Source: Thermothielavioides terrestris NRRL 8126 (lineage: Eukaryota > Ascomycota > Sordariomycetes > Sordariales > Chaetomiaceae). Taken from it: DNA of 64,000 bases. Shown piece after piece: positions 1,891 through 42,476 of this stretch. The notes under the pieces were generated by a model, which worked only from the letters and a program-made list of their open reading frames with translations, was not told the DNA's origin and made no database searches. The DNA lies in NCBI RefSeq assembly GCF_000226115.1, contig NC_016457.1, positions 9,548,001-9,612,000 of the forward strand. The letters run 5' to 3'. Numbering within the stretch: the first letter of the stretch is position 1; each line of letters begins with the position of its first letter. Made by a program: the position numbers and the translations under genes.

Positions 1891-2280
1891 TATATAGACT
1901 ACCCTATAAAGACTAGCTACTTAGACAAATACAACTATATAGGCGTAGGAAAACTATAATACGTCTAAGTCTAGTCATTCTCCTAAACCTAGATAGAATA
2001 GAACTGTATACGAAAAAAACAATAGGACGTACTAGTAGCGTTATTTATTTAAGGTCTATAATAGGACCTACGTCGGTAATCTCTTCCTTATTTTTAAACA
2101 GGTATATAGACGGAGTAGGCGTACAAGGGGGTAGAGCGGCGATGCGAGGGGTCTAAGGCGAGGGCTATATATATACTTAATAGGTACGTAGTACATCCTT
2201 TACTAGAGAGGAAGGGCATCGACTATAGTACGGGTTATAGGCGGGGGAATATATATAGGGAGAGTGGCGAGGGCGAGACC

Positions 2281-3148
2281 CTTAAGGGGTATAGATAGGC
2301 GAGGGGGTAGTAAGCGTAATAATATAGTTCGCGAAGTGTGAATTCGTCTCTAGGACAGTTGCCTAAGACTATACTATAGTGTAAATAGCCTCTACAATAT
2401 ACCGATTCTCTCACTAGGAGAAATCGAGATATTGCGCTATATACTTAACTAGGTAGCTATAATACTATATAGTAAGGTTGTCCTAAGGAGCCTAGTATAG
2501 AACTAGGGCTCTTTGCTAGCCTAAGGTCAAAGGAGATAAAGGGGGGGCTAGAAGTATATTGAGTACAAAGGTAGAGCGTACTAGAGACTAATGCTATAGG
2601 GCTATACTAATTACGTTATAGAAGCTATATACGAAAGTACTGAATTATAGCGTTAAAATAGTACGATAGGCTAGCTTAGTCTTGGTCTTCTTTTAGGTAG
2701 GCTTAGCGATAGCTTGGTTATTAGTATAAAACTTAACTAAGCGTTTTAGACTAGTATATAGAAAGACGTTTATTACCTAGAGTACTAGATCTTAATAGTA
2801 CTTAGTATAGGCTTTAGTATATTCTAAGCAGCTTTCTCCCTAGCCTTGAATATAATCTACTAAGTTACTATAAAAAAACTATTCGATATAATTAAGGTAG
2901 ACGTCTCCTTCCTCCTTTAGGAGGGCGTTATCCTTATCGTTAGAATCTCCCTCTACGATATAGCTACTAATAATATAACGAAAGGAGTTGCTATAGTTGT
3001 TATAGTTCTATCTAGGACACTATTAGCTTCTAGTCTAGGGCTAGAGTAGGCCCAATATAGGGTAATATACATTGCAATCTTAGTTGTCGTCCCCTCTAGG
3101 ACGACGTCCCTCGCCACTATCTCTAAGAGAAGCGATTGTTACCGACAT
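2281..3148 (-). pseudogene. Antisense gene of Gypsy-1 (two exons, RIPed)
   Basis: On the strand opposite to pol, an ATG at 3148 opens a 26-codon first exon (3071-3148). Its donor is damaged (GT to AT). A long second exon follows that aligns over its length with the antisense genes of Gypsy-2 and Gypsy-3. A conserved VEGDS-type motif lies near the start of exon 2. TAG and TAA stand for Gln. I know no family for it. The 3' end is set by analogy with Gypsy-2. Confidence 0.6.
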
Positions 3149-20337: not shown

Positions 20338-20536
20338 TGTCACGTCAGGGGTAAGGGGCTCAGAGCTTGGCACAGCGCACTGGCCATAGCTTCTCCACTC
20401 CTAGATATATATATACCACGCTCTGTTCAGTCTTTAGCTCTCCTTTATACTGGAACAACGCACTCTCTTTGTATCCCGATGCTCTACTACGATCCTACCG
20501 TTGTATCTACACCTCGTAGCTCGCTATAGCATGTCA
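20338..20536 (+). repeat. Copia 5' LTR (199 bp)
   Basis: Differs from the 3' LTR at nine positions, all C/T or G/A. The seven sites toward the interior are in the mutated (T/A) state here, and the two outermost are not. Includes ATATATATATA and a CTTTAGCTCTCCTTT pyrimidine stretch. Confidence 0.95.
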
Positions 20537-20633: not shown

Positions 20634-22228
20634 ATGACTACCGAGAGTAGCTCAACCATTATACTCCAGTCCTATATAGATTGGACCAAGTAGTTTATAG
20701 AGCTTAAGCTTATAGCTACGAGCAATGGCATCTAAGACGAATATGATCTAGATGCTTCCAACGAGCTTTAAAATAAGCGACCGAAAGTTCCTTCGGAGGA
20801 TAAAGTAGTCGAAGAGCTTTATAAGAAGTACGCTAAGGAATTAGGTATCCTTATAGGCTAAGCCTTAGCTCCTACTAAATAAGAGGTTACTACTAAGCTT
20901 AAAGCTATATATAAGGAATACCTTATACTTATAGTTATCTAGGAGAGTAAAATAAAGTTATATTCATTTATCCTCTAGTGGATTATACGCTCTATTCACC
21001 GACCTCTACTTAACGCTATATATATCGTTATTTCGAATACTAGACTCAATAGTCTCTAAGCTCTTATTTACAAGCTTTGTAAATAGCTTATACCTTTTAA
21101 TACTCTCGTTAAAGATTTAGCTACTCGACAATATATAACGGTACTATAAGAGGTATATAGAGTAGATATCAACCTATATAAGTAGTACCACTCTTAGAAC
21201 AAAGTATATTTATATATAAAAAGCTTCGATATCCCTAAAGTAGTCGGACCTAGAGTATCTAAATACCTTATCGAGGTAGTCGGTCACTAGATCGCCCTAG
21301 ACTAGGCTCGTCACCAGCTCTCTAAGATCGAGGCACTCGAAGCCTAGAGGCGCCCAATTCCTACTCTTAAAGAGCTAGGCGCTCGCCTTAGCATTTAGAT
21401 CGACAACACCACCACTAAGGGGCTCGACTATAGCGCATTTACTTCTTTAAAAGTAGCTTAAGGTAATAGTTCTATAGATAATATAGGCTCTTATAGCTTA
21501 AAGCTCTATTTATACCTTTACAAGGCCAATGGCAAGTATAGGTAGAAGCTAATAGAGTATTAGTTTCTCTAGACGGTAATCACTAGGGTAGAGAAGGGCT
21601 ACTATAAGCTTTTAGAAGTATAGATTACTAAGATTAGAGAGCGCCTCAACGAACTAAAGTGGAATTCCCTTTAGGAGAGCCTCTAAAAGCGGTATAGCTC
21701 TAGCTCTATAGAGTAGAGGAACTCTAAGTCAGCTTCTTCTAACAAGGTCGTCTATACTGTTATCGACCTAAGCCTCCTAGACGAAGGAGCTTACTACTTG
21801 TTTATATTTTCGACTACTATTACCTACTAGCTCTCTTAGAGCATTCTCCTTGACAACTATACCGCTTTATATATCGTCAACGATAAGAAGCTCCTAGTTC
21901 CTAGTACCTTCGTACTATTAAGAGACAGTGACTATATAGAAGTAGGCACTACCACTTTTCTTATTTTAAGAAGAGGAGAGCGTATTATAAAAGGAGTATT
22001 AGATAGAGAGTAGGGGAAAGGAACTATAGACCTCTACTTAAAGAACATTACTATAGTAGAAGGCTTTTATACCAACATTATATCGAAGACCACTCTATAT
22101 ATAGTTGGCATCTAGTATTTAGGTCTAGACTACTCTCTATAGTACAAAACGCTTAAGAAGAGTATAAAGATTAAGTAGTTGGTTTATAAGTTTAATGTAG
22201 TTTTCCTCGAATCGAAGAACCTTTCCTC
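20634..22228 (+). pseudogene. Copia gag and protease segment, RIPed
   Basis: ATG 20634 opens a frame (MTTESSSTIILQSYIDW...) that stays in phase to the Gypsy-2 insertion. The front is a gag-like helical region. From about 21745 comes a protease plus gag-pre-integrase stretch (LLDN-x-TAL-x-IVNDKKLLVP; THTLY/SLQYKTLKKS-type). Stops are TAG/TAA in place of Gln/Trp codons. The reading continues at 29791. Confidence 0.85.
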
Positions 22229-22488
22229 TATTATAGACCGGGCTATACCCGGGCTAGGTATATAGGGCTACGCCTAGGATCTATAGCGGTCCTATGACGG
22301 GCCTGCCATAGGCCTAAGGCGGACCCGCCTCGCGCCCGGAATAATATCGGCCCGAGCCCCCTATACGCGAGCCCTTAAAAACTCTATACGCGAGAACCGT
22401 AGCCTGTACTTCTCCTTTTCTCTCCTTAAGGTAGTTGAATAGAACATCGTACGCTTATCTATAGACGCTATAAGGCTAGCATATTATA
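22229..22488 (+). repeat. Gypsy-2 5' LTR
   Basis: 260 bp. TG/CA ends are changed to TA/TA by RIP. Contains AAGGTAGTTGAAT, complementary to the sequence that follows the LTR at 22489. Confidence 0.92.
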
Positions 22489-22592
22489 GTTCAACTACCT
22501 TTAGGCAGATAGAGCAATTGTTGCTTCTAGACGTAGACGAGAGCAGTACACTAGGCGTTTCGATACTAGTATCGAGCGGACTAGACGCTACT

Positions 22593-23830
22593 ATAAACAA
22601 CCTAGGCGTCCTATAGGTTCTAGACCTAGACTAGGTCTACAAACACTTCTAAGTCTTGTAGAAAACGATCGTATAGTAGAATATAACTATCGAGGAACTC
22701 TATATAGCTTAGATCGCTATAGCTTAGACTATAAACACCCCTATAGTAGCCTACGCCCCGGCTTCGACGATTAACGCTATAGCTTTAGTAGCTCCTAGGA
22801 CGCAATAGAAGCGCCTCCCTATAGGACAACCCTTCGACGGTAAAAAGGAACTCTTTGCCGCCTAGAGGGCTACAATAGCGTATATCCTAGTAGTAGACTA
22901 GGACTTTATCGGAGGCCTCTACAACTAGTAGATGTTCATTTAGGGGAACCTTAGCTAAGGAGTTTAGGCTAAGGTTATAGCCTTCTATAAGTTAGGAAGG
23001 CTCTACTACAATTATAATCTAGGAGCGTTCCTCGAGTACTTTGCGACTATTTATATAGACCTCTATAAATAGATTATAGCCTTGACGAAGCTAGATATAT
23101 TTCGCTAGGGAGACAACGAGCTATTCTCCTCCTTCTTTATTCACTTTAAGGCGAAGCTATCGAAGGTTAGAGAACTCAATTAGAGCAACGAAGTACAACT
23201 TATCAGACTATAACGATGCCTTTCCCTAAAGTTGAAGTATATCGTAGTAGGACAAGGGGTTCTATAGAACGACTATACTATAGCTATTGCAAAATACTAT
23301 AAGATCGCTACCGACCTAGAGGCCCTTCGTCTAGAGGAACAATATTAGCGGTCCTAGGGTAAGCGACCTAGGCCCAATATAGATATAGAGAAGGATATAG
23401 ACAAAGATATACTAATAATCAAGATCAATGTAGCCTATATTGCCTCTATCTAGGGGGGAGCTAACAAGGGCTATAGAGGAAAATAGTAGTAGAATAGAGG
23501 AAAGCGAAGTATAAACGTACTATAGGCGAAGTAGGTAAGCAACGAAGTATATATAGCACGTCAATAGGCTAGAGCCTATATCCGTTATAGGCGCCAAGGT
23601 TATTTTATAGCCACCTATCCCTTTACCCTAGCTAAGAGGCTAGCTCCTTAGGTCGATATCAATAAGCTAGAGGCTAAGGAATAGGTAGAGGAGGACTCCT
23701 TCTCTAAAGAGAAGGAGGGAAAAGAGTAGCCCCTATACAAAGTCTTGTACAGGGGTCGAAAGGACCTAGCCGTTTATAGAACGAGTTTATAGAGATTAGA
23801 GAAAGAATAGATAAGCTACTTTTTCTAATC
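22593..23830 (+). pseudogene. Gypsy-2 gag, RIPed (start codon ATG to ATA)
   Basis: Collinear with the Gypsy-3 gag, but the start codon reads ATA at 22593. Contains the QPFDGKKELFAA capsid-like segment and a CCHC knuckle region near 23575-23620 in which Cys codons are mutated. The 3' end is approximate. Confidence 0.75.
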
Positions 23831-23879
23831 CCTATTTTCCTAAACTCCTTTGGTTTTATAAATATATAAATAAATAGTA

Positions 23880-26800
23880 GGTACTAGAGCTATAGAGCTA
23901 TTAGCGAAAGAGTATATTAGCGGTTAGAGATCAAGCAAATAAGCCTATCGACTCCCTATACCCTAGGCGTTGTAGTTAAAGGGGTATAAATTATAAAGAA
24001 AATTATATATATCGCCTAGGCCGTAATGGATATTAATAGGTGAATTAATACTACTATATTCTATATAGTCCTAGGACTAGCCTACAACGTTATTCTAAGG
24101 CTCCTTTAAATAAACTACTATAGGATTATACTAGACCTAGCTAACAAAGTCCTTACTATCAATTCGTAAAGCAGCTTATAGGTATATAAGTGCTTCTTAT
24201 AGTGGAAAGAAACTAATACTACCCTAATTATAGGCGCGATATTCGTAGGCTTAGCTTATAGAGTATAAAAGAAGAAGTCTAAAAGAGCTTAAGACACGTT
24301 CCTCGTCACTAGTATCCGTAAGATAACTACTATACTAGGGGTAGCCGTCTCTTAGCCTAACGCTGACCTAGACCCGAAGATCGCTCTACTAAAGGAGCTA
24401 CAAGACTTCGCCAACCTCTTCGATAAAGAAAAGGCGAACAGTCTACCTTCCTATTGGGGGGAGGCCGACCATTATATCCGTCTTAAGATAGGCCTAGACA
24501 AGAAACCTTCTAAGCTTCTATAGGGACCTTTGTACAATATGCTAAGGGACTACCTCCTAGAGATTTAGAAGTAGGTCGTAGACCTAATAGACAAGGGATA
24601 GATCTAGGTAAGCTCTTTATTAGTAGCTGCCCTAGTCCTCCTTATAAAGAAGCTAAAAGGGGGATAGAGGTTCTATATAGATTATTAGGCCCTAAACAAG
24701 ATCATTAAATAGGACTAGTACCTATTCCCTTTAATTAAGGAGACTCTTTGGTCCCTAGCTAGGGCCAAATAGTTTACAAAGCTAGACGTTAGAGCTACCT
24801 TCTATTGTATCCGGATAGCTAAGGGGGACGAGTACCTTATAGTGTTTTATACGAGGTTTAAGCTATTTAAGTGGCTAGTCTACCCTTTTAGGCTTATAGA
24901 TACTTCTATAACGTTCTAGAGATATATTAACAACGCCCTTGGCCTAATGCTAGAGGACTATATAACGGTGTACCTTGACGATGTCTTAGTGTATTTAAGT
25001 AGGAGCTAGAAGAACTATATAAAGAAGATATATAAGGTCCTCTAGAGGCTGAGGGATATAGGCCTCAACCTAGACCTTAAGAAGTATACGTTTATAGTAA
25101 AGGAAGTTAAGTACCTAGGGTATATTATAGAGGTAGGAGTCTATATTCGCCCCGACCCTAAGAAGATTAAGGCTATTCGCAAATAAAAGGTACCCTATAG
25201 AGTCTAAGGAGTATAGAGCTTCCTTAGGTTTACTAACTTCTATCACGACTTTATCCCTAACTTCTTCAAGAAGGTAGCCCTATTGATATGTCTTACCTAT
25301 AAAAATGTCCTATTCCACTAGGGCAAGGAGGAATAGGAGGCCTTCGATATACTTAAGGCTATATTTATATCGGAGCCGATCTTCGCCTAGTAGGATCTTA
25401 AGAGGAAGACAATCGTAGAAGTAGACTATTCTAGTATAGCACTTAGTAGGTACTTGTCTTAGTAGGGGGAGGATAGGGTCCTTTACCCTATAGCCTACCA
25501 CTCTATAAAACTGAGCTCTACTAAATGCAACTATACTATCTACAATAAAGAGCTATTAGCTATTATCTTATACCTTAAGGCCTAGTCGACAAAGCTTCGA
25601 AGCGTAGTAGCCCCCTTCACTATCTTAACCAACTATAAGAATCTTAAGTACTTTACTTAGCTATATCTAATTAGCGAACGATAGGCTAGATAGGCGGAGA
25701 CACTCTCTTTATTCAACTTTAAGCTAAAGTATTGGCTAGGATCCTAGGCCTCGTGCCCTAATACGCTCTCCTAGCGTAAGTAGGATAAGCCTAAAGACAA
25801 CTAGCGTATCGCCTAGCTACTTTCCCTAATTAAAGTATATTAGACTAATATATAGGAGGAGGCTAGGCTACCTATAGGAGAAACGCTCTTTGAGAATAAG
25901 TAGCTTACTACCTTATAAAACGAAGGTTTTGTCGAAGACAAGCACTATATTCACTAGCTCTAAGCCGTTTACAATAAAGCTCGGAAGTTTCCTAAGGAGA
26001 CGAATATAGTATAGACCTAGATCGTAGACTACTCCTTTAATATATAAAGCGCGCTCTAGTTCTATAGCCATCTCTAGCTCTTTATATAGGAGCCCTTAAC
26101 CACTACGATCATCTAGCAGATTTATAACTTAGCTATATCGGGATACCTAAGGTATAATAGGCTATTTAAAATGCTTTAGAGAAATTATTACTAGGACCTT
26201 ATATCGTCCAATGTAAAGCGGTTTATTAAGAACTACAATTAGTGCTACTAGAGTAAGATCTCTCGACAATTATATCAAAGGCTTCTATAACCCTTGCCTA
26301 TCCCTAATCGCTTTTGGAAACAGATCTCTATTAACTTTATAACTAACCTTCCTATAAGAGACGAAGGAGCGCCTAGCTACTTTATAATAATTATTAATCG
26401 TCTTTCTAAATATATATAGCTCAAAGCAATATACTCGATAGGAGTAGAAGAGTATACCCTTCGATTCTATAATATATAGTAGCGTTTCTATAGGTTCTCG
26501 ACCTAAATTATAACCGACTATAGGTCGGACTAGCTAAGTAGGTTCTAGACCGCGTTATATAAAGCGGTAGGGGTAAAGCAACTCTTGTCGACTTCTTACT
26601 ATCCCTAGATAGATAGAGGGACAGAGTAGGTCAACTAAGAGGTATAGGCAATCCTCCAAATCTTCGTCTCCTTTATATAGTACAACTAGCCTAAATATCT
26701 TCTAGTCTACTAGTTTATACTTAATAATAGGGACTTGTCTATAACCGGAGTAAGCTCGAACTACCTCCTCTATAGGTTTAATATAAGCCTTATATAGCTT

Positions 26801-27440
26801 ATTACGATCCTAATAGCGCCTATAGCATCTCTAGAAGATCGCGTCGCTAGGTTCCTCTATTATCTAAAGGAGAAGATAGAGTAGACCTAAGCAGCTATTA
26901 CATATATATAGTAGCGGTAGTAGACGAATGTAAACCGCTCTTGCCACCTAGCTAAGAGGTTCTAGATAGAGGACGAGGTATAGCTCTCTTTATATAATAT
27001 AAAGACGAACTACCTTAGTAAGAAGCTCGACTAGCTAAATACTAAGTATAAGGTAGTTGTAGTACCGACCTCGCTAACAGTGACGCTTGATATACTAAGC
27101 GGTTTATACTCGACCTTCTATATTGACTTAGTTGAGTAAGCGGCTTCCAACCTACTCCCTTTGTAGAAAGTTATAGATAAAAGACTAGACTCTATATAGG
27201 TTATATCGGAGGAGGGTATTCCCTAATAGGAATATAGGGTAGAGGCGATCCTTAAAGCTTAGAACGTAAAAGGGAGAGAGAACAACTATGATATATACGT
27301 TAAGTAGATAGGTTATAATAAACCAATGTAGGAGCCTTTAGAGAACTTCCTAGAGATTGCTATACTTAACGAGTTCGAATAGGAGTAGAGAGACGTATAA
27401 TACAATGATAGGCTAGTATTAAACTAGAGAAGGAAAAGGA
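23880..27440 (+). pseudogene. Gypsy-2 pol (PR-RT-RH-IN-chromodomain), RIPed
   Basis: Protease region, then RT with intact YLDD at 24971-24982, RNase H, integrase with H-x-C zinc-binding residues, and a chromodomain near 27235-27385. The distance from the gag start site to a fixed RT codon (2,102 nt) is the same as in Gypsy-3. Pol is therefore in the -1 frame relative to gag in both copies, which fits -1 frameshifting or a separate ORF. Confidence 0.85.
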
Positions 27441-27843
27441 AACGTTGTATTTATATATAGACTACCCTACAAAGACTAGCTACTTAGACAAATACAACTA
27501 TATAGACGTAGGAAAACTATAATACACCTAAGTCTAGTCATCCTCCTAAACTTAGATAGAACGGAACTATATACAAAAAAACAATGGGACGTACTAGCGG
27601 CGTCATTTATTTAGGGTCTATAATAGGACCTATATCGGTAATCTCTTCCTTATCTTCGAATAGGTATATAGGCGGAGTAGGTATATAAAAGGGTAGAGCG
27701 GCGACGTAAAGGGTCTAAGGCGAGGGCTATATATACGTTTGACAAGCGTATAGTACGTCCTCTACTAGGAAGGAAGGGCGTCGACTATAGTGTAGATTAT
27801 AGGCGGGGGAACGTATATAGGGAGAGTAGCGGGGATAGGACCT

Positions 27844-28710
27844 TCAAGGGGTATAGATAGGCAAGGGGGCAGTAAACGCAATAATATAGTTTATAAAGTG
27901 TAAATTCGTTTCTAGGACGGTTGCCTAAGACTATACTATAATGTAAATAGCCTCTGCGATATATCGATTCTCTTACTAGAAGGAATCGAGATATTATGCT
28001 ATATACTTAACTAGGCGGCTATAATGCTATATAGCGAGGTTGTCCTAAGGAGCCTAGTACAAAACCAAGGCTCCTCGTTGGCCTAGGGTCGAAGGAGATA
28101 AAGAGGGGGCTAGAAGCATGTTAGGTACAAAGGTAGAGTACGTCGGAGACCGATACTATAGGGCTATACCAATCGCATTATAGAAGCTATATATAAAAGT
28201 ACTAAATTATAGCGTTAAGATAGTATAATAGGCTAGCTTGGTCTTAGTCTTCTTCTAGGTAGGCTTAGCGACGACTTAGTTGTCGATATAAAACTTAACT
28301 AAATGTTTTAGACTAACGTATAGAGAGACGTTTGTCGCCTAGAGTATTAGATCCTAATGGCACTTAGTATAGGCTTTGGTATATTCTAAGTAGCTTTTTC
28401 CCTAGCTTTGAATATAATCTACTAAGTTACTACAAAGAAGTTGCTCAATACAATTGAGGTAGATATCTCTCTCCTCCTTTAGGAGAGCGTTATCCTTATT
28501 GTTAGAATCTCCTTCTACGATATAGCTACTAATAGTATAATAAGAGGAGTTACTACGGTTGTTACAGTTTTGTCTAGGATACTATTAGCTTCTAGTCCAA
28601 GGCCGAAGTAGGCCTAATATAGGGTAATGTATATTGCAATCTTAGTTGTCGTCCCCTCTAGGACGACGTCCTTCGCTACTATCTCTAAGAGAAGCGACTA
28701 CTACCGACAT
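27844..28710 (-). pseudogene. Antisense spliced gene of Gypsy-2 (about 265 aa when read through)
   Basis: Exon 1 is 28710-28633 (26 codons, starts MSVVVASLRD, ends in a DDN-x-DC segment). The donor is RIPed from GT to AT. The acceptor is CTAATAG...CCTAG at 28574. Exon 2 runs from 28573 to about 27844. It aligns with the Gypsy-3 antisense protein at many positions: VEGDS, KDN-x-LL, KSYLE-type, AYT, and the C-terminal INYII. TAG/TAA stand at Gln. No known domain was recognised. Opposite strand to pol and non-overlapping with it. Confidence 0.65.
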
Positions 28711-29525
28711 TATAGTAGGTAAGTCTTAAGAACGTATTAGAATCGTAAAGGAAATAGAAAGCTATTGTAGAGGGCGAAGTAAGTAGATAGAATATATATA
28801 AGCTATATATCTAAAGGAGGCGGCTAGGGGACTAAGCGAGTATAAAGAGAAAAGATTATAGGATAAGTCGAGTGTAAAATAGAAGTATAGCGAATACAGT
28901 TAGTAAAGTAGTTAGATATATAATAACGACGATAGGGCCAATACAATAGGAGTATAGACGCTAGACGACTATATAGCTTATATAAAAAGAGGCCGACAAT
29001 ATATAAGGTAAATACTCGACAAAGCGAATAGGAGGCAAGAAAAAATATAAAGGGCGGAAGATATATATAGGATAGAAGCGCAATAAATGAGGAACGTACG
29101 CGAAGTAGGATAAAGAGAGAAATGTCGATATACAAGTAGAAGGAAGACAAAGTCGTAGAAGTAGGGAGAAGGCGTACACTAGAAACGAGAAGAGAACATA
29201 GAGAGCGAGTTCGTATAAGGGGAGGGGTTTTATTGGCAATAGGTAGGGGGTCTGTCGTACTCGATTAGTAGGTATACCTTATACGATATAATTGCTATAG
29301 AGGAGAGTATAGAACGAAGAAGAGGCCAATTAGCGTTCTACAAGAGCGAGGTAAATAAATAACCTACGACTAGGCAGTAGGATTATAGGCAGTAGCGCTA
29401 AGCTACCTAAATACCAAGTTGGACATCGACGTTCGCTATAATCGACCCTACACTACGCTAGATCTACGCTTGGCGCTACGCTACGTATACCCTAAACTAG
29501 CTCCCTATCCGGGAAGGGGGGGGTA

Positions 29526-29785
29526 TGTTATAGACTGGGCTATACCTAGGCTAGATATATAGGGCTACGCCTAGGATCTATAGCGGTCCTATAACGGGCC
29601 TACCACGGGCCTAAGGCGGACCCGCCTCGCGCCTAGAATAACATCGGCCTAAGCCCCTTGTATACGAGCCCCTAAAAACTCTATACACGAGAACCGTAGC
29701 CTGTACTTCTCCTTTTCTCTCCTTAAAGTAGTTGAATAGAACATCGTACGCTTATCTGTAGACGCTATAAGGCTAGCACGTTATA
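29526..29785 (+). repeat. Gypsy-2 3' LTR
   Basis: Starts TGTTATAGACTGGGC directly after a G-rich PPT (GGGAAGGGGGGGG) and ends ...GCACGTTATA. Confidence 0.93.
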
Positions 29786-29790
29786 TCCTC

Positions 29791-31459
29791 TTACTTTTAT
29801 ACTCTCTAACCTTTATAGAGCTTTATAGGCCTAGTAACAATGAATATAGTTGTTTATAAAGATGATACGAGGTTATATACGTTATATACGCCTCGAGAGA
29901 GAGAAGATACCGAGGAGCTTTAGTATAAGAGATCTAGATATCTAGGTCAAAGAGCTCTTTAGGCATTAGTATAGAGCACAAAGAACATTAAGATCTAAGG
30001 AACGTCGACGATCGAATATAAGGTATACGCTCTATTATACATTAAGGAATATAATACGCTTTATAAGACAAAGTATCGTACCTTATAGCCGTTCTAGCGT
30101 ATCTCCTAGGACCTCTTCTCATTCCCTCCTAGGTTTAATAGATCCTAGTACCTCTTTATAATCAAGGACGAATTTAATGGACGGATCTAGGCTTTTACAC
30201 TCTCTAACAAAGGTTAAACCGAGCTCTTCAACACTATTAGAGCTTTTGAATACTAGGTTAAACGGCAATAAGGACTTAACGTCTATAAAATCTACTAGGA
30301 CAACGATATAGAAGTCATTACATTAGAAGATCGTTAACCAATAACTTACTAGCTCTAGGTATACAACGAAGGTATCGACTTAGAGCTTACGCCAATATAT
30401 ATACCGTAGCCAAATAGAACGTTAGAGCATATAGGACAAGTCTTATAACTAAAGAGTATAAAGATGCTTATTAACACGAACCTACCTACGAAGCTCTAGC
30501 CAAAGGGTATAAAGGTAGTAGCCTTCTTATATACTATTTCGCCTAGCTATACTTATAGTCTTTAGAGCTTTAACGAGATACTCTACTCTTAGTTTAAAAA
30601 TTACTTTCGTTAGTAGGAACCAACCTTCTACTAAACGCTAATAGCGAATCTATACCCCGACTAATCTAGGATCTTCGTATATAGCTATAGAGTATACCCC
30701 TTAGATAAGGAGTATAAAGCTAGGTATTGGAAGAGAGAATTTAAAGTACAGCTATATAGGCGAATTAGGTACCTAGTTAGGTATAGAGCATCCAACATTT
30801 ATCGTATCTAGATGCCTAAGCTCGACAAGGTTATAGTGATAAGGAACGTAACGTTTAATAAGAGGACCTTTTACTATCTAGGTAAGGAAGAGCTTCTAGC
30901 TTACAAAGTTACTATTATCAAGGATATAGCAGAGCACCTAGACAAGGGGGTTGAAGAGACCTAGGACGCTAGGTCGATTCTCTAAACGCTCTACGAACTT
31001 AAGTACAAAGGACCAACGCTAGAGTCCATCACTATTATAGTTCCTAAGTATAAAAGTATACTACTAAGTCAAGACTTAGGGGTAGGGGAAACATAGGCGT
31101 AGGGTAGACTCTTGACCCCTAAGATGTCATTGGAACTATAGGCTTAGCTATAGAAAGAGCTTATAAACAGAAGTGATAATAGAAACAGAGGTCTAGTCGA
31201 TAATTCTAGTGCTTTTCCAAAGACTAGTAGAGCATCTAGGGACCTTAGGCTAGCAATGGCTATCCTACGAAGTACCGCCTCTAGGAGCGAATATAAGGCT
31301 TCTCCGTCTATAGAGTACCTAGCTCTATAAAGCGAATATAAGGCTTCTCCGCCTATAGAGTACCTAGCTCTATAAAGCGACTATAAGGTATCTCTGCCTA
31401 TAGAGCCTCTAGCTCTATAAAGTAAAGAAGAGGATATATTCTATAATATAGTAGAATAT
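29791..31459 (+). pseudogene. Copia integrase segment, RIPed
   Basis: Continues the Copia frame in phase from 22228. Reads as an integrase core: QRISQDLFSFPP, RYLFIIKDEFNGRI-x-AF, then a QGLNVYKI-x-QDND segment. The latter part is the acidic linker toward RT with three ~55-bp direct repeats (GAATATAAGGCTTCTCCG-type) at about 31290-31420. Interrupted at 31459 by Gypsy-3. Confidence 0.8.
31288..31425 (+). repeat. Three ~55-bp direct repeats in the Copia linker
   Basis: AGCGAATATAAGGCTTCTCC...TATAGAGTACCTAGCTCTATAA occurs twice nearly identically, and a third time diverged. In frame, so it encodes a small repeated acidic/Pro motif between integrase and RT. Confidence 0.7.
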
Positions 31460-31708
31460 TGTTACAGACCGGGCTGTACCCAGGCTAGGTATGTGGGGGC
31501 TGCGCCCAGGATCCGCGGCGGCCCTAGGGCGGACCCGTGGCGGGCCCGCCTCGCGCCCGGAATAACGTCGGCCCGAACCCACTCCGCGAGCCCCTGAAAA
31601 CTCTGTGTACAAGGACCGTAGCCTGTACTTCTCCTTTTCCTTTCCTTAAGGTAGTTGAATAGAACATCGTACGCTTATCTACAAACGCTATAAGGCCAGC
31701 ACATTACA
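31460..31708 (+). repeat. Gypsy-3 5' LTR (249 bp)
   Basis: Retains TG...CA ends (TGTTACAG...CATTACA). Contains AAGGTAGTTGAAT at 31648-31660. Confidence 0.94.
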
Positions 31709-31721
31709 ATTCAACTACCTT
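31709..31721 (+). other. Self-primer binding site of Gypsy-3
   Basis: ATTCAACTACCTT directly follows the LTR and is a perfect 13-nt reverse complement of AAGGTAGTTGAAT at 31648-31660 in the LTR. This is the Tf1/sushi arrangement in which the RNA 5' end primes reverse transcription. It predicts the transcript start at about 31648. Confidence 0.75.
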
Positions 31722-31812
31722 CACACAAATAGAGCAGCTATTACTTTCAGGTATAGACGAGAGTAGTACGCTAAGCGTTTCGACGTCGGCACCGAGCAGG
31801 CCGGACGCTACT

Positions 31813-33040
31813 ATGAACAACCTAGGCGTCCCGTAGGTCCCGGACCTGGATTGGGTCCGCGAGCACTTCCAACTCTTATAGGAGACGATCGTACGTTAGA
31901 ACGCAACCATTGAGGAACTTCGTATAGCCTAGATTGCTGTAGCTTAGACTATGAACGCCCCCACGGTAGTAAACGCCTAGGCTCCAACGACTGATACCGC
32001 GGCTCTAGCAGCTCCCTAGACGTAGCGGAAGCGTCTCCCTATAGGACAACCCTTCGACGGTAAAAAGGAGCTCTTTGCCGCCTAGAGGGCCACGATAGCG
32101 TACGTCCTAGTAGCGGACTAGGACTTTATTGGGGGTCCCTACGACCAATGGGTATTCATTTGGGGGAACCTTAGCTAGGGGGTCTAGGCCAAGGTCGCGG
32201 CCTTCTACGAATCGGGAGGACCTAGCTGCAACTACGACCTAGGAGCGTTTCTCAAGTATCTTACGACAATCTACATAGACCCCTACGAGCAGGTTATAGC
32301 CTTGACGGAGCTAGATATACTCCGCTAAGGAGATAACGAGCTGTTCTCCTCCTTTATTGTTTACTTCGAGGCGAAGCTATCGAAGGCTAGAGGACTCAAT
32401 TAGAGCGACGAGGTACAACTTATCAGACTGCAACGATGCCTTTCCCCGAAGTTAAAGCATATCTTAGTGGGATAGGGGGTCCTGTAGAACGACTATACTA
32501 CGGCTATTACGAAGTACTGCGAGATCGCTATCGACCTAGAGGCCCTCCGCCTAGAGGAACAATACTAGCGGTCCTAGGGTAAGCGACCTAGGCCCAATGT
32601 AGACGTAGAGAAGGATATAGATAGAGATATACCGATAACCAGGATTAATACGACCTACACTGCCCTAGCCTAGGGGGGAGCCAATAGGGGTCGTAGAGGA
32701 AAGCAATAGCGGAATAGAGGAAAACAAAGCGTAAATGCGCTATAGGCGAAGTAGATAAGCAATAAAGTATATATAGCGCGCTAATAGGCTAGAGCCTATA
32801 TCCGTTGCAAGCGCCAAGGCCACTTCGTAGCCACCTGTCCCTTCGCCTTAGCTAAGAGACTAGCTCCTCAGGTCGATATCAACAAGTTGGAGGCCGAGGA
32901 ATAGGTGGAGGAGGACTCCCCCTCTAAAGAGGAAGAGGGAAAAGAGTAGCCCCTATACAAAGTCTTGTACAGGGGCTAAAAGGACCTAGCCACTTATAGA
33001 ACAAGTTCGTAGAGATTAGAGAGAGAATAGATAAGCCTCT
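31813..33040 (+). pseudogene. Gypsy-3 gag, RIPed
   Basis: ATG at 31813 opens the frame. It has an N-terminal coiled-coil-like segment, then QPFDGKKELFAAQ and a capsid-type region. A nucleocapsid knuckle at 32797-32838 reads Y-x2-C-x4-H-x4-C, the first Cys codon TGT having become TAT. Many Gln codons are TAG. The frame ends in an acidic stretch. The 3' limit is approximate. Confidence 0.82.
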
Positions 33041-33074
33041 CTTTTTTATCCCTATTTTTCTAAACTCCTTTAGT

Positions 33075-36000
33075 TTTATAAATGTATAAGTGGATAGTAG
33101 GTGCTAGAGCTATAGAGCTATTAGCGAGAGAGTATATCAGAGGTTAGGGATCGAGCAGATAAGCCTACCGACTCCCTATACCCTAGATGTTGTAGTCAAG
33201 GGGGTACAAATCATAAAGAAAATTATATATATTGCCTACGTTACAATGGACGTCGATAGGTAGATCAATACCGCTATATTCTACGTAGTACTAGGGCTAG
33301 CCTACAACGTTATATTGGGGCTCCCCTAGATAAACCACTGCGGGATTGTACTGGACCTAGCCAACGGGGTCCTTACCGTTAATTCGCAAGGCGGCCTATA
33401 GGTATATAAGTGCTCCTCGTAGCGAAAAGAAGCCAACGCCACCCTAATTATAGGCATAGTGTTTATAGGCTTGGCCTATAGGGTACAAAGGAAGAAGTCT
33501 AAAGGGGTACGAGACATGTTCCTCGTCACTAATATCCACGAGATAACTACTATACTAGGAGCGGCTATCTCCTAGCCTAATACCAACCTAGACCTGAAGG
33601 TCGCTCTGCCGGAGGAGCTATATAACTTCGTCAACCTCTTCGACAAGGAGAAGGCGAACGACCTCCCCCTTTATCGAAGGGAGGCCGACTATTATATCTA
33701 TCTCAAGACGGGCCTAGACGGAAAACCTCCTAAGCTCCTATAGAGACCCTTATATAATATACCAAGGGACTATCTCCTAGAGATTCGGAAGTAGGTTATA
33801 GACCTATTGGATAAGGGATAGATCTAGGTAAGCTCCTTATTAGTAGCTACCCTAGTCTTCCTCGTAAAAAAGCTAGGAGGAGGATAGAGGTTCTATATAG
33901 ACTACCGAGCCTTGAACAAGATTACTAAGCAGGACTGGTACCCGCTCCCCCTAATTAAGGAGACTCTTTGGTCCTTAGCTAAGGCCAAATGGCTTATAAA
34001 GCTAGACGTTAGGGCTACGTTCTACCGTATTTGGATAGCTAAGGGGGACGAGCACCTTATAGCGTTTCGTATAAGGTTTAGACTATTCGAGTGGCTAGTC
34101 TGCCCCTTTGGACTTGTAGATACTCCTATAACGTTCTAGAGATACATTAACAACGCCCTTGGTCTAACGCTAGGAGACTATATAACGGTATACCTTAACG
34201 ACGTCTTAGTATACTTGAGTGGAAGCCGAAAGGACTATATAAAGAAGGTATACGAGGTCCTCCGAAGACTGAGAGACGTAGGCCTCAACCTAGACCTTAA
34301 GAAATACGTATTCGTAGTAAAGGAAGTCAAGTACCTAGGGTATATTGTAGAGGCTAGGGTCTATATCCGCCCCGACCCTAAGAAGATCAAGGCCATCTAT
34401 AAGTAGGAGGTACCCTATAAGGTCCGAGGAGTATAGAGCTTCCTAGGATTCGTTAATTTCTATCGCGACTTTATCCTCAACTTCTTTGAGAAGGCGGCCC
34501 CATTAATACGCCTTATCTATAAGAACATCCCCTTCCACTAGGGCAAAGAGGAATAGGACGCCTTCGACACGCTTAAGGCCACGTTTATATTAGAGCCGAT
34601 CCTTGCCTAATAGGATCCTAAAAGAGAGACGATCGTAGAAGCAGACTATTCTAGTATAGTACTTAGTAGATACTTGTCTTAGCGAGGAGAGGACGGGGTT
34701 CTTTACCCTATAGCCTACTACTCCGCGAAACTAAGCCCTATCGAACGTAACTACACTATTTATAACAAAGAGCTATTAGCTATTATCTCGTGTCTTAAGG
34801 CCTAGTCAACGGAGCTTCGGAGTGTAGTGGCCCCCTTCACTATCTTGACCGACTATAAGAACCTCGAGTACTTTACCTAGCCACGTCCGATCAATGAACA
34901 GTAGGCCTAATAGGTAGAGACGCTCTCCCTATTTAACTTCGAGCTGAAGTACTGGCTAGGATCCTAGGCCTTGCGCCCCAATACGCTCTCTCGGCGTAAA
35001 TAAGACGAGCCTGAAGATAGCTAGTATATCGCCTAGCTACTCCCTCCGATCAAGGTATACTAGACCAACGTATAGGAGGAGGCTAGGTTGCCTATAGGAG
35101 AGACGCTCTTCGAAGATAAGTAGCTCGTAGCCCTATAGGACGAGGGTATTGTCGGAGACGAGCACTACGCTCACCAGCTCTAGGCCATTTACAACGGAGC
35201 TCGGAAGTTTCTAAAGGAGGCGAACATAGTGTAAACCTAGATCGTAGACTGCTCCCTCAACGTATAAGGCGCGCTCCAGTTCTATAGCCGTCTCTAGCTC
35301 CCTACGTAGGAGCCCTTGACTACTACGATCATCTAGCAGATCTATAACTCGGCTATATCGGGATACCCAAGGTGTAACGAGCTATTCAAAATGCTCTAAA
35401 GAGATTACTACTAGGACCTTATATCGTCCAACGTAAAGCGGTTCATTAGGAACTGCAACTAGTACCGCCGAAGCAAGATCTTCTAGCAGCTACGTTAAAG
35501 GCTTTTACAACCCTTGCCTATCCCTAATCGCTTCTAGAAACAGATCTCTATTGACTTTATAACCGACTTCCCTACGAGAGACGAGGGGGCGCCTAGCTAC
35601 CTTATAGTGATTACCAACTACCTCTCCAAGTATATATAGCTCGAGGCAATGTATTCGATAGGAGTAGAAGAGTATGTTCTCTAGTTCTATAACGTATAGT
35701 AGCGCTTCTATAGGTTCCCGACTCAAATTATAACCGACTATAGGTCAGACTGGTTGAGTAAGTTCTAGACCGCGCTATATAAGGCGGTAGGGGTAGAGCA
35801 GCTCCTGTCGACTTCTTACTATCCCTAGACGGATAGGGGAATAGAGCGGGTCAACCAAGAGGTATAGGCTATCCTCTGGATCTTCGTCTCCTTTATATAG
35901 TACGACTAGCCTAAATACCTCCTAGCCTACTAGTTCGCACTCAACAATAGGGACTCGTCTATGACTAGGGTAAGCCCGAACTACCTTCTCCACAGGTTCG

Positions 36001-36690
36001 ACATAAGCCCTATACAACTTATCACGATCCCGACGGCGCCTATAGCGACCTTAGAGGGCCGTATTGCCAGGTTCCTCCGCCATCTGAAGGAGGGAATAGA
36101 GTAGACCTAAGTAGCTATCGTATATATATAGCAGTGGTAGTAGGCGAATACGAACCGCTCCCGCCGCCTAGCCAAGAGGTTCAAGGTAGGGGACGAGGTA
36201 TAGCTCTCTCTATACAATATAAAGACGAACCGCCCTAGTAAGAAACTCGACTAGCTGAATGCCAAGTATAAGGTGGTCGTAGTACCTACCCCCTTGACAG
36301 TGACGCTCGATGTACTAAGTGGTCTATACCCAACCTTCTATATCGATCTAGTCGAGCGAGTAGCCTCTGATCCGCTCCCTTCGTAGAAAGTCACAGATAA
36401 GCGGCTAGACCCTATATAGGTTATATCGGAGGAGGGTATTCCTTAGTAGGAGTATAGGGTAGAAGCGATCTTCAAAGCTCGGAACGCTAGGGGGAGGGGA
36501 AACAACCGCGATATATACGTCAAGTAGGTAGGTTACAACAAACCAACGTAGGAGCCCCTAGAGAACTTCTTAGATACTGCTACGCTCGACGAGTTCGAAT
36601 AGGAATAGGGAGATACGCGATACAACGACAGGCTGGCGTCGAACCGGAGGAGGAAGAGAAAACGTAATGTTTGTATATAGACTACCCTAT
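33075..36690 (+). pseudogene. Gypsy-3 pol (PR-RT-RH-IN-chromodomain), RIPed
   Basis: Protease region near 33240-33420. RT runs from about 33830 (YRALNKITKQDWYPLPLI), with the active site reading YLND near 34189, a G-to-A loss of one Asp. RNase H and integrase (H-x-C motifs; D-x-D-E region) follow. A C-terminal chromodomain lies at about 36450-36600 (EYRVEAIFKAR... GYNKP... PLENFLD) with its Trp codons as TAG. Chromodomains of this type bind H3K9me in other fungal chromoviruses. Confidence 0.9.
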
Positions 36691-37363
36691 AAGAAACGAC
36701 AACGATAAAACGAATATAGCTCAGTAGCACTACTGGGTACATGGTCACCCTAATACGTCTAGCTATAGCCTTATCACGAAAAGACAATAAAAGAAATATA
36801 GGCGTAGAGAGATCCTAATATACCAACTAAGTCTATTTCCTCAAATGTGGGTAGTCCTCTAGCCTTACCCTAGCGTCAACCCTACAGTACCGTAGGATAC
36901 CTAGGTATAAGCTGAGGGGAGGTGGGGTCGGCGGCTAATGTATAACCTACTTCGGGATCTCCGAGGTAGGACGGGGGCGGATATTAAAATTGCTGTAACT
37001 ACTTTAGTCGATAGGTTGGTTCGACAGAGGATTAAGGCGTAGGATAAAACGGGGACAGGGCTACGATAGAAGACAGGGCTATCTCTAGCCCTACTCTATA
37101 GCCTCTTTATCTCTAGATAGCACTAGGTCGCTAGTAGGCGAGTATATAGCACCCTTATCCGACGACGAGAGCACCTCTATAATCGGCTACCTGTTGGACC
37201 CACTAGGGGTCTAGGGAGGAGGATCAGCGCGTTTACGACGGATATATACGAGGTCCTTGGTAAGCGAAGACGAGTAGCGCTAGGGATATAGGGTGAAGGG
37301 GACTAGGGCAATGTTACGCTTAGTAGGAGTCGAACTGTAGCCACCCCGTAGAGAGGGGCTAGA

Positions 37364-38220
37364 CTATAGCGAACTTAAAATATAGTCGATAAGACGGTTG
37401 TTAGTATTAACAACGGTCGTAATAGTGTCGACTAGGTAGCGTATTTCACGTTGATAGGCTTCCTTATTACTCATTAGGCGATAAGTCAAGTAGGTGGCTA
37501 GCTGAGCAGAGGCGTTTAGGGAGGAAGCGGGTGGATTATAGGGCACTAGAGCCCTATAGCGGCTTAGCGTAGCGGAGGAGGCAACCAGGGTCCAAGGGAC
37601 AGTGCGAGTCGGAGTTCGCTCGGTAGTAGACGGGGGAAGCAGTGCTAGCTGAGCGGGGATATAGCGCGCCTATACGTTGTTAAAAGTAGTCTAGAAAGAC
37701 TGAGCTAGCTTCTAGAATTCGCGTTTAAGGACTATACAGTAGGCGGGCTACAAGCTCATCTTCTTCTAGGCAGGGGTCTCGATAGCCTAGCCTATATTGT
37801 ACACCTTAAGAATTTTCTTTAGACTAGACCGAAGGCGGAGGTTTATTGCCTATAACGCGAAGTCCTACTTATACATTGTATAGGCCCTACGACATTCCTT
37901 ATAAGATTTGCTATAGCTAGGGGTGTATTCGACCTTAGTGCCATTGAGGAGGCGAGCAACGTACTATATATAGAACTCTCCTTTGTCGGAGAGCAGTTCG
38001 TTTTCCTTGTCGTCGGAGTCTCCCTCGACAACGAACCTACCGATCGATAGCTTATCATTCTTCTAGCGATTGTTTCAATTCTATAATATCGCGGTTAGCG
38101 AGCGACTCAGGTCTACGACGGGATCATCCTAGAGGTACTCACGTTACAGTCTTCGTTATCATCGCTACTAGGATAGCGGCCTACGCCCCTACCTCTAAGA
38201 GTGGTAGCGGCGACTAACAT
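37364..38220 (-). pseudogene. Antisense spliced gene of Gypsy-3
   Basis: Exon 1 is 38220-38143, 26 codons (MLVAATTLRGRG..., ending SSDDNEDCN). The intron is 38142-38081, 62 nt, with GTGAGT, a GCTAAC branch and TATAG. Exon 2 runs from 38080 to a TAG at 37364, or beyond it to about 37090 if that TAG is a RIPed Gln. It encodes a VVEGDSDDKENELL segment, a KSYKECRRAYTMYKQDF-type region and a C-terminal helical part ending in RLIDYIL. Exon-1 length, intron position and motifs match Gypsy-2 despite strong nucleotide divergence. No known domain was recognised; the protein is charged and probably helical. Confidence 0.72.
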
Positions 38221-38779
38221 TTTGGCAATCCTACACGTAAATGCGATGGGCGAGTTTTAGGAACTATATCGCTATCGGGGCGGGGGACGAAAAGACTTTG
38301 GCCAGAGCCGAGGTGGAAATAAGCAGTACGCTCGAGGATGTGGGCAGATATACGGAGAGAATATAGGAGGAGGGGAACGTGTGTAAGGCGGGATAGGGGG
38401 ACGTTGTCGGCGTACGAAGAGGGAAGAAACCAGATCGTAAGAGAGGAGGGGGATATATACGTTAAGTATGGGAGGGAAACGCGAGAAAGTCGGGTTGTAC
38501 GAGAAGAGGGGCTTTTGATGGCGACGAGCAGGGTCGAATCGTATATAATCAGTAGGTATACCCAATACGGCGCGGTTGCTCTGTGTAAACGTACAAGGAG
38601 AGGAGGGGGCTAATCAGCGGCTTACTAGGGCGACGTAAATAAACAACTCGAGCCTAGGCAGTAGGACGGCCACGAATGGCAAGACCTCAGCGGGCAACCA
38701 CCCCGAACTCGACTACGCCGATGCTCGATATAGCGTCGTATATGCCTCAACTCGACCGCCTAGCGGGGCGGGGGGGGTA

Positions 38780-39028
38780 TATTATAGACCGGGCTATACC
38801 TGGGCTAGGTATGTGGGGGCTACGCCTAGGATCCGCGGTGGCCCCAGGGCGGACCCGTAGTGGGCCCGCCTCGCGCCCGGAATAACGTTGGCCCGAACCT
38901 ACTCCGCGAGCCCCTGAAAACTCTGTGTACAAGGACCGTAGCCTGTACTTCTCCTTTTCCTTTCCTTAAGGTAGTTGAATAGAACATCGTACGCTTATCT
39001 GCAGACGCCATAAGGCTAGCACGTTACA
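38780..39028 (+). repeat. Gypsy-3 3' LTR (249 bp)
   Basis: Preceded by a G-rich PPT (GGGGCGGGGGGGG). Its interior side carries more C-to-T/G-to-A changes than the matching side of the 5' LTR (e.g. TATTATAG for TGTTACAG). Confidence 0.94.
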
Positions 39029-39033
39029 AATAT

Positions 39034-42277: not shown

Positions 42278-42476
42278 TGTTACGTCAGGGGTAAGGGGCT
42301 TAGAGCTTGGCACAGCGCACTGGCCATAGCTTCTCCACTCCTGGATATATATATACCACGCTCTGTTCAGTCTTTAGCTCTCCTTTGTACTGGAACAACG
42401 CACTCTCTTTGCATCCCGATGCTCTACTACGATCCCACCGTTGTATCCACACCTCGTAGCTCGCTGTAGCGTGTCA
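42278..42476 (+). repeat. Copia 3' LTR (199 bp)
   Basis: Mutated only at the two sites nearest the interior (TGTTACG, GGCTTAG). The outer seven variable sites are in the unmutated state. GCACT follows as the target duplication. Confidence 0.95.

What the first reader, a model, noticed from the sequence alone, without database searches (positions are those of the whole stretch)
27844..28710. Conserved spliced antisense gene in a fungal Gypsy chromovirus family (three copies)
All three Gypsy copies carry, opposite to pol and between the chromodomain and 3' LTR, a frame of the same design: a 26-codon first exon, an intron at the same site, and a second exon of roughly 240 codons. The copies lie at 2281-3148, 27844-28710 and 37364-38220. 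Gypsy-3 belongs to a diverged subfamily, yet its protein aligns (MxV..xLR...DDN-x-DC | VEGDS-x-x-K-x-N-x-LL ... KSY ... AYT ... K-x-D ... YI). RIP cannot make such conservation on the non-pol strand; it suggests past selection on a protein. Antisense ORFs are known in some plant LTR elements, but I know of none like this in fungi. Possible roles: silencing suppressor, export or targeting factor.
Basis: partly seen in the sequence, partly recalled or inferred. Interest (0 to 1): 0.87.

Follow-up and report, generated by a model that had tools for sequence, protein, structure and literature searches.

The report
Spliced antisense gene in fungal retrotransposon
A family of virus-like jumping genes in a fungus carries an extra gene written backwards behind its copying enzymes; the pattern of changes between subfamilies shows that its protein sequence was preserved while they diverged, and it is predicted to be spliced and to act, likely through a zinc-binding domain, as a regulator of the element.

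Summary
The 106 copies fetched (subfamilies A and B, window copies included) carry on the minus strand, between the chromodomain-like end of pol and the 3' LTR, a predicted two-exon frame: 26 codons, a phase-0 intron (63 nt in A, 62 nt in B), then 320 (A) or 329 (B) codons. Transversions, which RIP does not make, fall 14:5:40 on codon positions 1:2:3 between A1 and A2. A and B match far better as antisense proteins than in the mirror sense frame with the same wobble sites (profile scores 245.6 and 86.1). An un-RIPed partial relative shows six cysteines, C-x2-C-x11-C-x7-C-x2-C-x6-C; there every copy has a Cys codon or the Tyr codon that RIP makes of it. I infer an accessory gene for a zinc-cluster-like, probably nuclear, regulator. 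Precedent: Boty elements of Botrytis carry an antisense gene, brtn, in the same place; homology could not be tested. Two searches of a protein database rich in fungi found no relative.

The parts
22229..29785 (+). Element 2 (subfamily A), with both LTRs (260 bp, 22229-22488 and 29526-29785) and a 5-bp target-site duplication TCCTC at 22224-22228 and 29786-29790
   Evidence: 258 nt of the LTR pair differ by 24 transitions and 0 transversions
31460..39028 (+). Element 3 (subfamily B), with both LTRs (31460-31708 and 38780-39028) and target-site duplication AATAT at 31455-31459 and 39029-39033
   Evidence: 248 nt of the LTR pair differ by 17 transitions, 0 transversions
24644..25708 (+). Element 2 reverse transcriptase and RNase H region, which fixes the sense strand
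   Evidence: RVT_1 E 7.8e-18, RT_RNaseH_2 1.3e-18, RT_RNaseH 8.7e-16 (piece scanned with X at stops)
27230..27388 (+). Element 2 chromodomain-like end of pol (counterparts from 1667 and from 36450); the name rests on the motif, recalled
   Evidence: sequence; no Pfam match; weak PDB profile matches for the B counterpart: 6 of 9 rows are chromodomains (Rhino E 0.042, CBX8, CBX6), the other 3 beta-lactamases at another part
28633..28710 (-). Element 2 antisense gene, exon 1 (26 codons)
   Evidence: 4 of 4 A1/A2 transversions at codon position 3
28570..28632 (-). Element 2 antisense intron, predicted, 63 nt, phase 0, with a CTRAY-like branch site
27607..28569 (-). Element 2 antisense exon 2, 320 codons plus stop
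28360..28461 (-). Six-cysteine stretch, exon-2 codons 37-70
2045..3148 (-). Element 1 (subfamily A) antisense gene: exon 1 3071-3148, intron 3008-3070, exon 2 2045-3007
37091..38220 (-). Element 3 (subfamily B) antisense gene: exon 1 38143-38220, predicted intron 38081-38142 (GTGAGT...GCTAAC...TATTATAG), exon 2 37091-38080 (329 codons plus stop; stops at codons 239 and 267 in all 40 B copies)
28824..29525 (.). Stretch between the antisense ATG region and the 3' LTR, indel-rich and without codon periodicity as far as read (to 29210); candidate place of the antisense promoter (inferred)

Best explanation
The element carries, antisense between pol and the 3' LTR, a predicted two-exon gene whose reading frame shows purifying selection, and its product is likely a zinc-cluster-like regulator of the element. 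Shown by the sequences: strand, reading frame, intron-like signals at one place in both subfamilies, codon-position constraint, the six cysteine columns, and RIP damage. Inferred: an antisense promoter in the roughly 0.8 kb before the 3' LTR makes a minus-strand mRNA, and splicing joins exon 1 to exon 2. The sense genomic RNA, which is the one reverse-transcribed, shows these splice signals only in reverse complement, so the intron would survive each round of retrotransposition. The protein would have a six-cysteine zinc domain in its first third and a C-terminal part of unknown fold, bind nucleic acid in the nucleus, and control transcription or integration of the element, a job like that proposed for other antisense accessory proteins. 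Its amplification probably ended in bursts that RIP then inactivated.
For: In the 106 fetched copies the block has no gap relative to its reference in 98 (34 of 35 A1, 25 of 31 A2, 16 of 16 B1, 23 of 24 B2; insertions not counted), while the upstream flank is indel-rich. Transversions by codon position: A1/A2 14:5:40 (p 6.7e-8), B1/B2 4:3:12 (p 0.0074); relative L107 against B1 4:2:20, sum of codons 7-71 and 73-104. On a pol piece the same test picks the pol strand (284 and 242). Intron: same phase and place in both subfamilies; acceptor AG in 89 and AA in 17 of 106; donor GT or its RIP product AT in the 105 of 106 shown; CTRAY-like site in 106 of 106. Six Cys columns: TGY or TAY in 636 of 636 cells, all six Cys in L107. 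L107 has host-like RIP indices (TpA/ApT 0.51 in the matching part, host 0.54, element 2 1.85).
Against: No transcript, splicing or protein was observed. Codon 72 of exon 2 is a stop in 106 of 106 copies and TAG also in L107; B has further stops in 40 of 40 copies at codons 77, 239 and 267, and 111. Between A1 and A2 the codon pattern is weak in codons 73-148 (4:4:5), and antisense hardly beats sense in codons 149-320; between B1 and B2 sense is slightly ahead in codons 268-329 (BLOSUM 2.93 and 2.81). In A a nearer AG (CTAG) precedes the in-frame acceptor. The cysteine spacing is not that of Gal4-type clusters, no Pfam family matches, and the 65-residue model has pLDDT 45.8. In B codon 37 is TAY in 40 of 40 copies, so that cysteine is seen for B only through L107. 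Nuclear and regulatory action is by analogy.
Confidence: 0.6

Rival explanations
1. Sense-strand gene: the block encodes a C-terminal extension of pol or an env-like sense ORF, and the antisense frame is its mirror image with shared wobble sites.
For: In both subfamilies the pol frame shares its wobble phase with antisense exon 2 (frames). Stop counts do not separate the two frames. The sense frame is open over 204 codons in L107. Between B1 and B2 sense is slightly ahead in codons 268-329.
Against: Antisense protein similarity exceeds sense in all A/B and L107 comparisons (for example L107 against B1 codons 73-104, BLOSUM 2.86 and 0.83 per codon). The method picks the sense strand for pol. 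Start, intron signals and end of frame fit the antisense strand.
Confidence: 0.05
2. Antisense non-coding RNA: the minus-strand transcript itself (dsRNA or interference) is the functional product and the frame is incidental.
For: Review passages describe antisense transcription and dsRNA as a possible mode (PMC7264820, passages). The intron shows few transversions, 1 of 63 and 0 of 62.
Against: Codon-periodic transversions and protein-level conservation across subfamilies. The dsRNA mode could act besides the protein.
Confidence: 0.1
3. A host gene, or a gene fragment, captured by the ancestral element; L107 is its host source or the remnant of another capture, and the copy is cargo rather than a working part of the element.
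For: L107 lies in normal-GC, un-RIPed sequence, and of the 2.5 kb only 293 bp match elements 2 and 3 by blastn.
Against: Constraint persisted while A1/A2, B1/B2 and A/B diverged, which cargo would not show. Two searches of a fungus-rich protein database found no host family (control). Origin by capture stays possible.
Confidence: 0.15
4. Zinc domain without a regulatory role: the protein is a nucleocapsid-like or packaging helper that binds genomic RNA.
For: Six cysteines beside an acidic stretch do not distinguish DNA from RNA binding.
Against: No CCHC pattern seen by eye in the stretch; an antisense accessory place is more typical of regulators (by analogy only).
Confidence: 0.1

Closest known systems
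brtn of Boty-like elements (Botrytis cinerea, Sclerotinia sclerotiorum; Zhao et al. 2011, paper not held, known from passages or sections of PMC7264820, PMC8365987, PMC4227169 and PMC5987419)
   Same: Fungal gypsy element with a CHROMO domain in gag-pol (PMC4227169); an extra gene, antisense, between pol and 3' LTR (PMC7264820)
   Different: Sequence not available here, so homology, intron and cysteines of BRTN could not be compared; other fungal class (recalled)
Antisense aORF-3R of plant gypsy elements (Grande gene23, RIRE2, Retand TRP28, PvRetro13)
   Same: Place, orientation, presence in most copies, proposed nuclear or DNA-binding role (PMC7264820 and PMC11963269, passages and sections)
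   Different: No TRP28 (PF04195) or SMC match here; the words intron and zinc do not occur in those two main texts
HTLV-1 HBZ (details recalled; HBZ is named, the HTLV antisense promoter)
   Same: Antisense gene near the 3' LTR, spliced with a small first exon (recalled); nuclear regulator
   Different: No bZIP match here; independent origin likely; other host kingdom
Gal4-type Zn2Cys6 clusters (PF00172; spacing recalled as C-x2-C-x6-C-x5-12-C-x2-C-x6-8-C)
   Same: Six cysteines in two halves, second half spacing compatible
   Different: First loop is x11 instead of x6; no Pfam match

Membership tests
Antisense accessory ORF of Ty3/gypsy elements (aORF-3R) | Lies between pol and 3' LTR | tested here: met
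   RT frame, chromodomain-like stretch, 3' LTR
Antisense accessory ORF of Ty3/gypsy elements (aORF-3R) | Antisense and protein-coding | tested here: met
   with pol control
Antisense accessory ORF of Ty3/gypsy elements (aORF-3R) | Present in most or all copies of the family | tested here: inconclusive
   106 copies fetched, but all were found by this very block, so elements without it would be missed
Antisense accessory ORF of Ty3/gypsy elements (aORF-3R) | Antisense transcript | not testable with these tools
   no RNA data; the fetched copies are RIP-damaged
brtn / BRTN family | Sequence homology to BRTN | not testable with these tools
   paper not held; BRTN sequence not seen
Gal4-type Zn2Cys6 (PF00172) | Spacing C-x2-C-x6-C-x5-12-C-x2-C-x6-8-C (recalled) | tested here: not met
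   C-x2-C-x11-C-x7-C-x2-C-x6-C in L107; no Pfam match
Retand TRP28 (PF04195) | Match to PF04195 | tested here: not met
   (RIP lowers sensitivity)
Chromovirus (fungal Ty3/gypsy) | Chromodomain at the end of pol | tested here: inconclusive
   characteristic stretch read; 6 of 9 weak PDB rows are chromodomains, best E 0.042; no Pfam match

The most novel reading that the evidence does not exclude
A fungal chromovirus encodes its own antisense, spliced zinc-cluster transcription regulator, an HBZ-like layout evolved in a retrotransposon, and makes it in two forms: a conserved in-frame UAG just after the zinc domain (stop in 106 of 106 copies and in the un-RIPed relative, with codon constraint continuing beyond it) would give a short 97-residue zinc protein and a read-through form of about 350 residues.
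Probability: 0.1. Interest if true: 0.85.

Novelty: new variant of a known kind. Interest (0 to 1): 0.62.

Why it matters
Copies of such elements in RIP-proficient fungi are often wrecked, so accessory genes are easily missed. Here transversions and a mirror-frame control reveal a hidden gene without mending any copy; the approach can be applied to other RIPed genomes. A conserved antisense gene with a predicted intron and a zinc-cluster-like domain in a fungal chromovirus, besides brtn in Boty, would suggest that antisense regulators are a recurrent solution in plants, fungi and retroviruses. It also makes a testable point: an intron on the antisense strand would be shielded from loss during retrotransposition.

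Tried and rejected
Homology searches: profile of 9 copies (none at E 0.001) and of L107 plus 5 copies (none at E 1). A control with a window gene showed that the database holds many fungal proteins, so the null says something, although the word filter and RIP limit it. PDB: five designed coiled-coil constructs at E 0.26 or worse, and two weak hits for L107, E 1.6 and 9.7. Pfam: best E 0.087, 0.1 and 0.28, each in one member, none. Structure prediction of the 65-residue zinc stretch: pLDDT 45.8, dropped, no fold search made. Stop-codon counts over six frames do not decide the strand. One L107 translation was out of frame (and the second protein); the in-frame ones are the first protein and the fifth. 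Two of six rows of alignment A3 were out of frame and were left out in A5. Rows dropped in scripts: one search used 32 of 35 A1 and 25 of 31 A2 copies; the last two comparisons used 62 of 66 A copies. From three partial places were not fetched, and those not already fetched, except L107. A second intron at codon 72 was considered and rejected because codons 73-104 are constrained in the same frame. Literature searches: (listings, of which five papers were opened for passages or sections); they led to brtn, and I saw no spliced antisense zinc gene of a fungal gypsy element in what was listed or read. This library lacks most subscription journals.

Full report
Setting. The window lies in a 36.9-Mb genome of six contigs. 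Size and contig number fit Thermothielavioides (Thielavia) terrestris, a thermophilic saprobe; this is recalled, not from a call. The window holds three related LTR elements in AT-rich, RIP-damaged stretches. Elements 2 and 3 have both LTRs and 5-bp target-site duplications, and the LTRs of each differ by transitions only (24 and 17 transitions, 0 transversions). The sense strand is fixed by reverse transcriptase and RNase H matches in both. A chromodomain-like stretch closes pol (motif recalled), with weak PDB support (6 of 9 rows chromodomains, best E 0.042) and no Pfam match.

Copies. Genome searches with the two block types gave 40 rows each, a third with a diverged A copy 41 rows, and a protein search 124 places, some partial; the tool says that such counts are lower bounds. 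I fetched and aligned 106 copies, the three window copies included: 66 of type A (35 A1, 31 A2) and 40 of type B (16 B1, 24 B2). Because copies were found by the block itself, elements that lack it would not be seen. Of the 35 A1 copies, 28, the window copy included, show no transversion against that window copy, so they probably stem from one burst and differ by RIP-type transitions. In the 70 copies counted the A frame holds at least 11 stops and the frame of B exon 2 at least 15; codon 77, Trp in the un-RIPed relative L107, is a stop in 106 of 106.

Gene model. Exon 1 has 26 codons; the start is ATG or its RIP product ATA in 105 of 106 copies. The predicted intron is phase 0 at the same place: 62 nt in B (GTRAGT, GCTAAC, TATAG) and 63 nt in A (GTACGT-like, CTRAY, YAG); acceptors are AG in 89 and AA in 17 of 106. 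In A the intron keeps the frame, but the branch-site triplet reads as a stop in the 40 A copies shown. Exon 2 starts with N-x-N-N-R in both.

Selection and strand. RIP makes transitions, so I used purine/pyrimidine classes only. Over the coding part, A1 against A2 differ by 14, 5 and 40 transversions at codon positions 1, 2 and 3 (p 6.7e-8, binomial against one third), and B1 against B2 by 4, 3 and 12 (p 0.0074). The flank upstream of the gene has 41 transversions in 304 columns without periodicity, and many indels. Codon phase alone cannot tell the strand, because the mirror sense frame shares the wobble sites; stop counts do not tell it either. Protein similarity does: antisense exceeds sense in all A/B and L107 comparisons. 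On a pol piece the same procedure prefers the pol strand, 284 against 242. The E-values of this procedure are not calibrated; the mirror frame is the control. Against: within A1/A2, codons 73-148 show only 4:4:5 and antisense hardly exceeds sense in codons 149-320; within B1/B2, sense is slightly ahead in codons 268-329 (2.93 and 2.81).

L107. One place, C3:3961111-3961416, lies in normal-GC sequence with host-like RIP indices. It matches codons 7-104 of exon 2. Against B1 its transversions are 3:2:10 in codons 7-71 and 1:0:10 in codons 73-104. It shows six cysteines, C-x2-C-x11-C-x7-C-x2-C-x6-C. At these six columns all 106 copies have TGY or TAY, the latter being what RIP makes of TGY; codon 67, by contrast, is TAY in all 106. 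In B codon 37 is TAY in 40 of 40. Only 293 bp of the 2.5 kb match elements 2 and 3 by blastn, so L107 is either a host gene sharing the domain or a fragment of another element; I could not decide.

Codon 72. Two codons after the sixth cysteine, codon 72 is a stop in 106 of 106 copies and TAG in L107; codon 77 is also a stop in 106 of 106 but TGG in L107. Constraint continues after codon 72. A RIPed Trp or Gln in the elements plus an independent mutation in L107 is the plain reading; conserved read-through is the bold one.

Function. No relative was found among proteins, with a positive control showing that the database holds many fungal proteins; Pfam and PDB gave weak, chance-level matches, and the one structure model was too poor to use. 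From anatomy I infer an antisense-transcribed, spliced accessory gene whose protein binds nucleic acid through a zinc-cluster-like domain and regulates the element. The splice signals on the minus strand would spare the intron during retrotransposition of the sense RNA (inference).

Known ground. [quoted passage not shown] PMC8365987 (passages) names brtn as the additional ORF of BcGypsy1 and cites the title that calls it antisense; PMC4227169 (passages) places brtn-106 in an element with a CHROMO domain; PMC5987419 (passage) reports a BRTN-like transcript in Monilinia. Whether this gene is homologous to brtn is open. Verdict: real, conserved, corrected in its borders, a new variant of a known kind.

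Noticed in passing
L107:1200-1514 (about G000 C3:3961111-3961416, minus strand): Un-RIPed relative of the antisense exon 2 in normal-GC sequence, with all six cysteines; could be a host gene or an element fragment.
   Followed up: partly
window 28354-28356 (exon-2 codon 72) and all fetched copies: In-frame stop in 106 of 106 copies and in un-RIPed L107, although codon constraint continues after it.
   Followed up: partly
window 28570-28632 and 38081-38142: The predicted introns show fewer transversions (1 of 63 in A1/A2, 0 of 62 in B1/B2) than the upstream flank (41 of 304 in A1/A2); unexplained.
   Followed up: no
28 of 35 A1 copies; LTR pairs of elements 2 and 3: No transversions against the window copy in 28 of 35 A1 copies (itself included) or within the two LTR pairs: a recent burst before RIP.
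   Followed up: yes
window 47930-49450, minus strand: Open host gene matching indoleamine 2,3-dioxygenase (PF01231), 99% identical to a database protein; used as search control.
   Followed up: yes
window 20338-20536 and 42278-42476: 199-nt direct repeat, 95% identical, near the borders of the AT-rich island.
   Followed up: no
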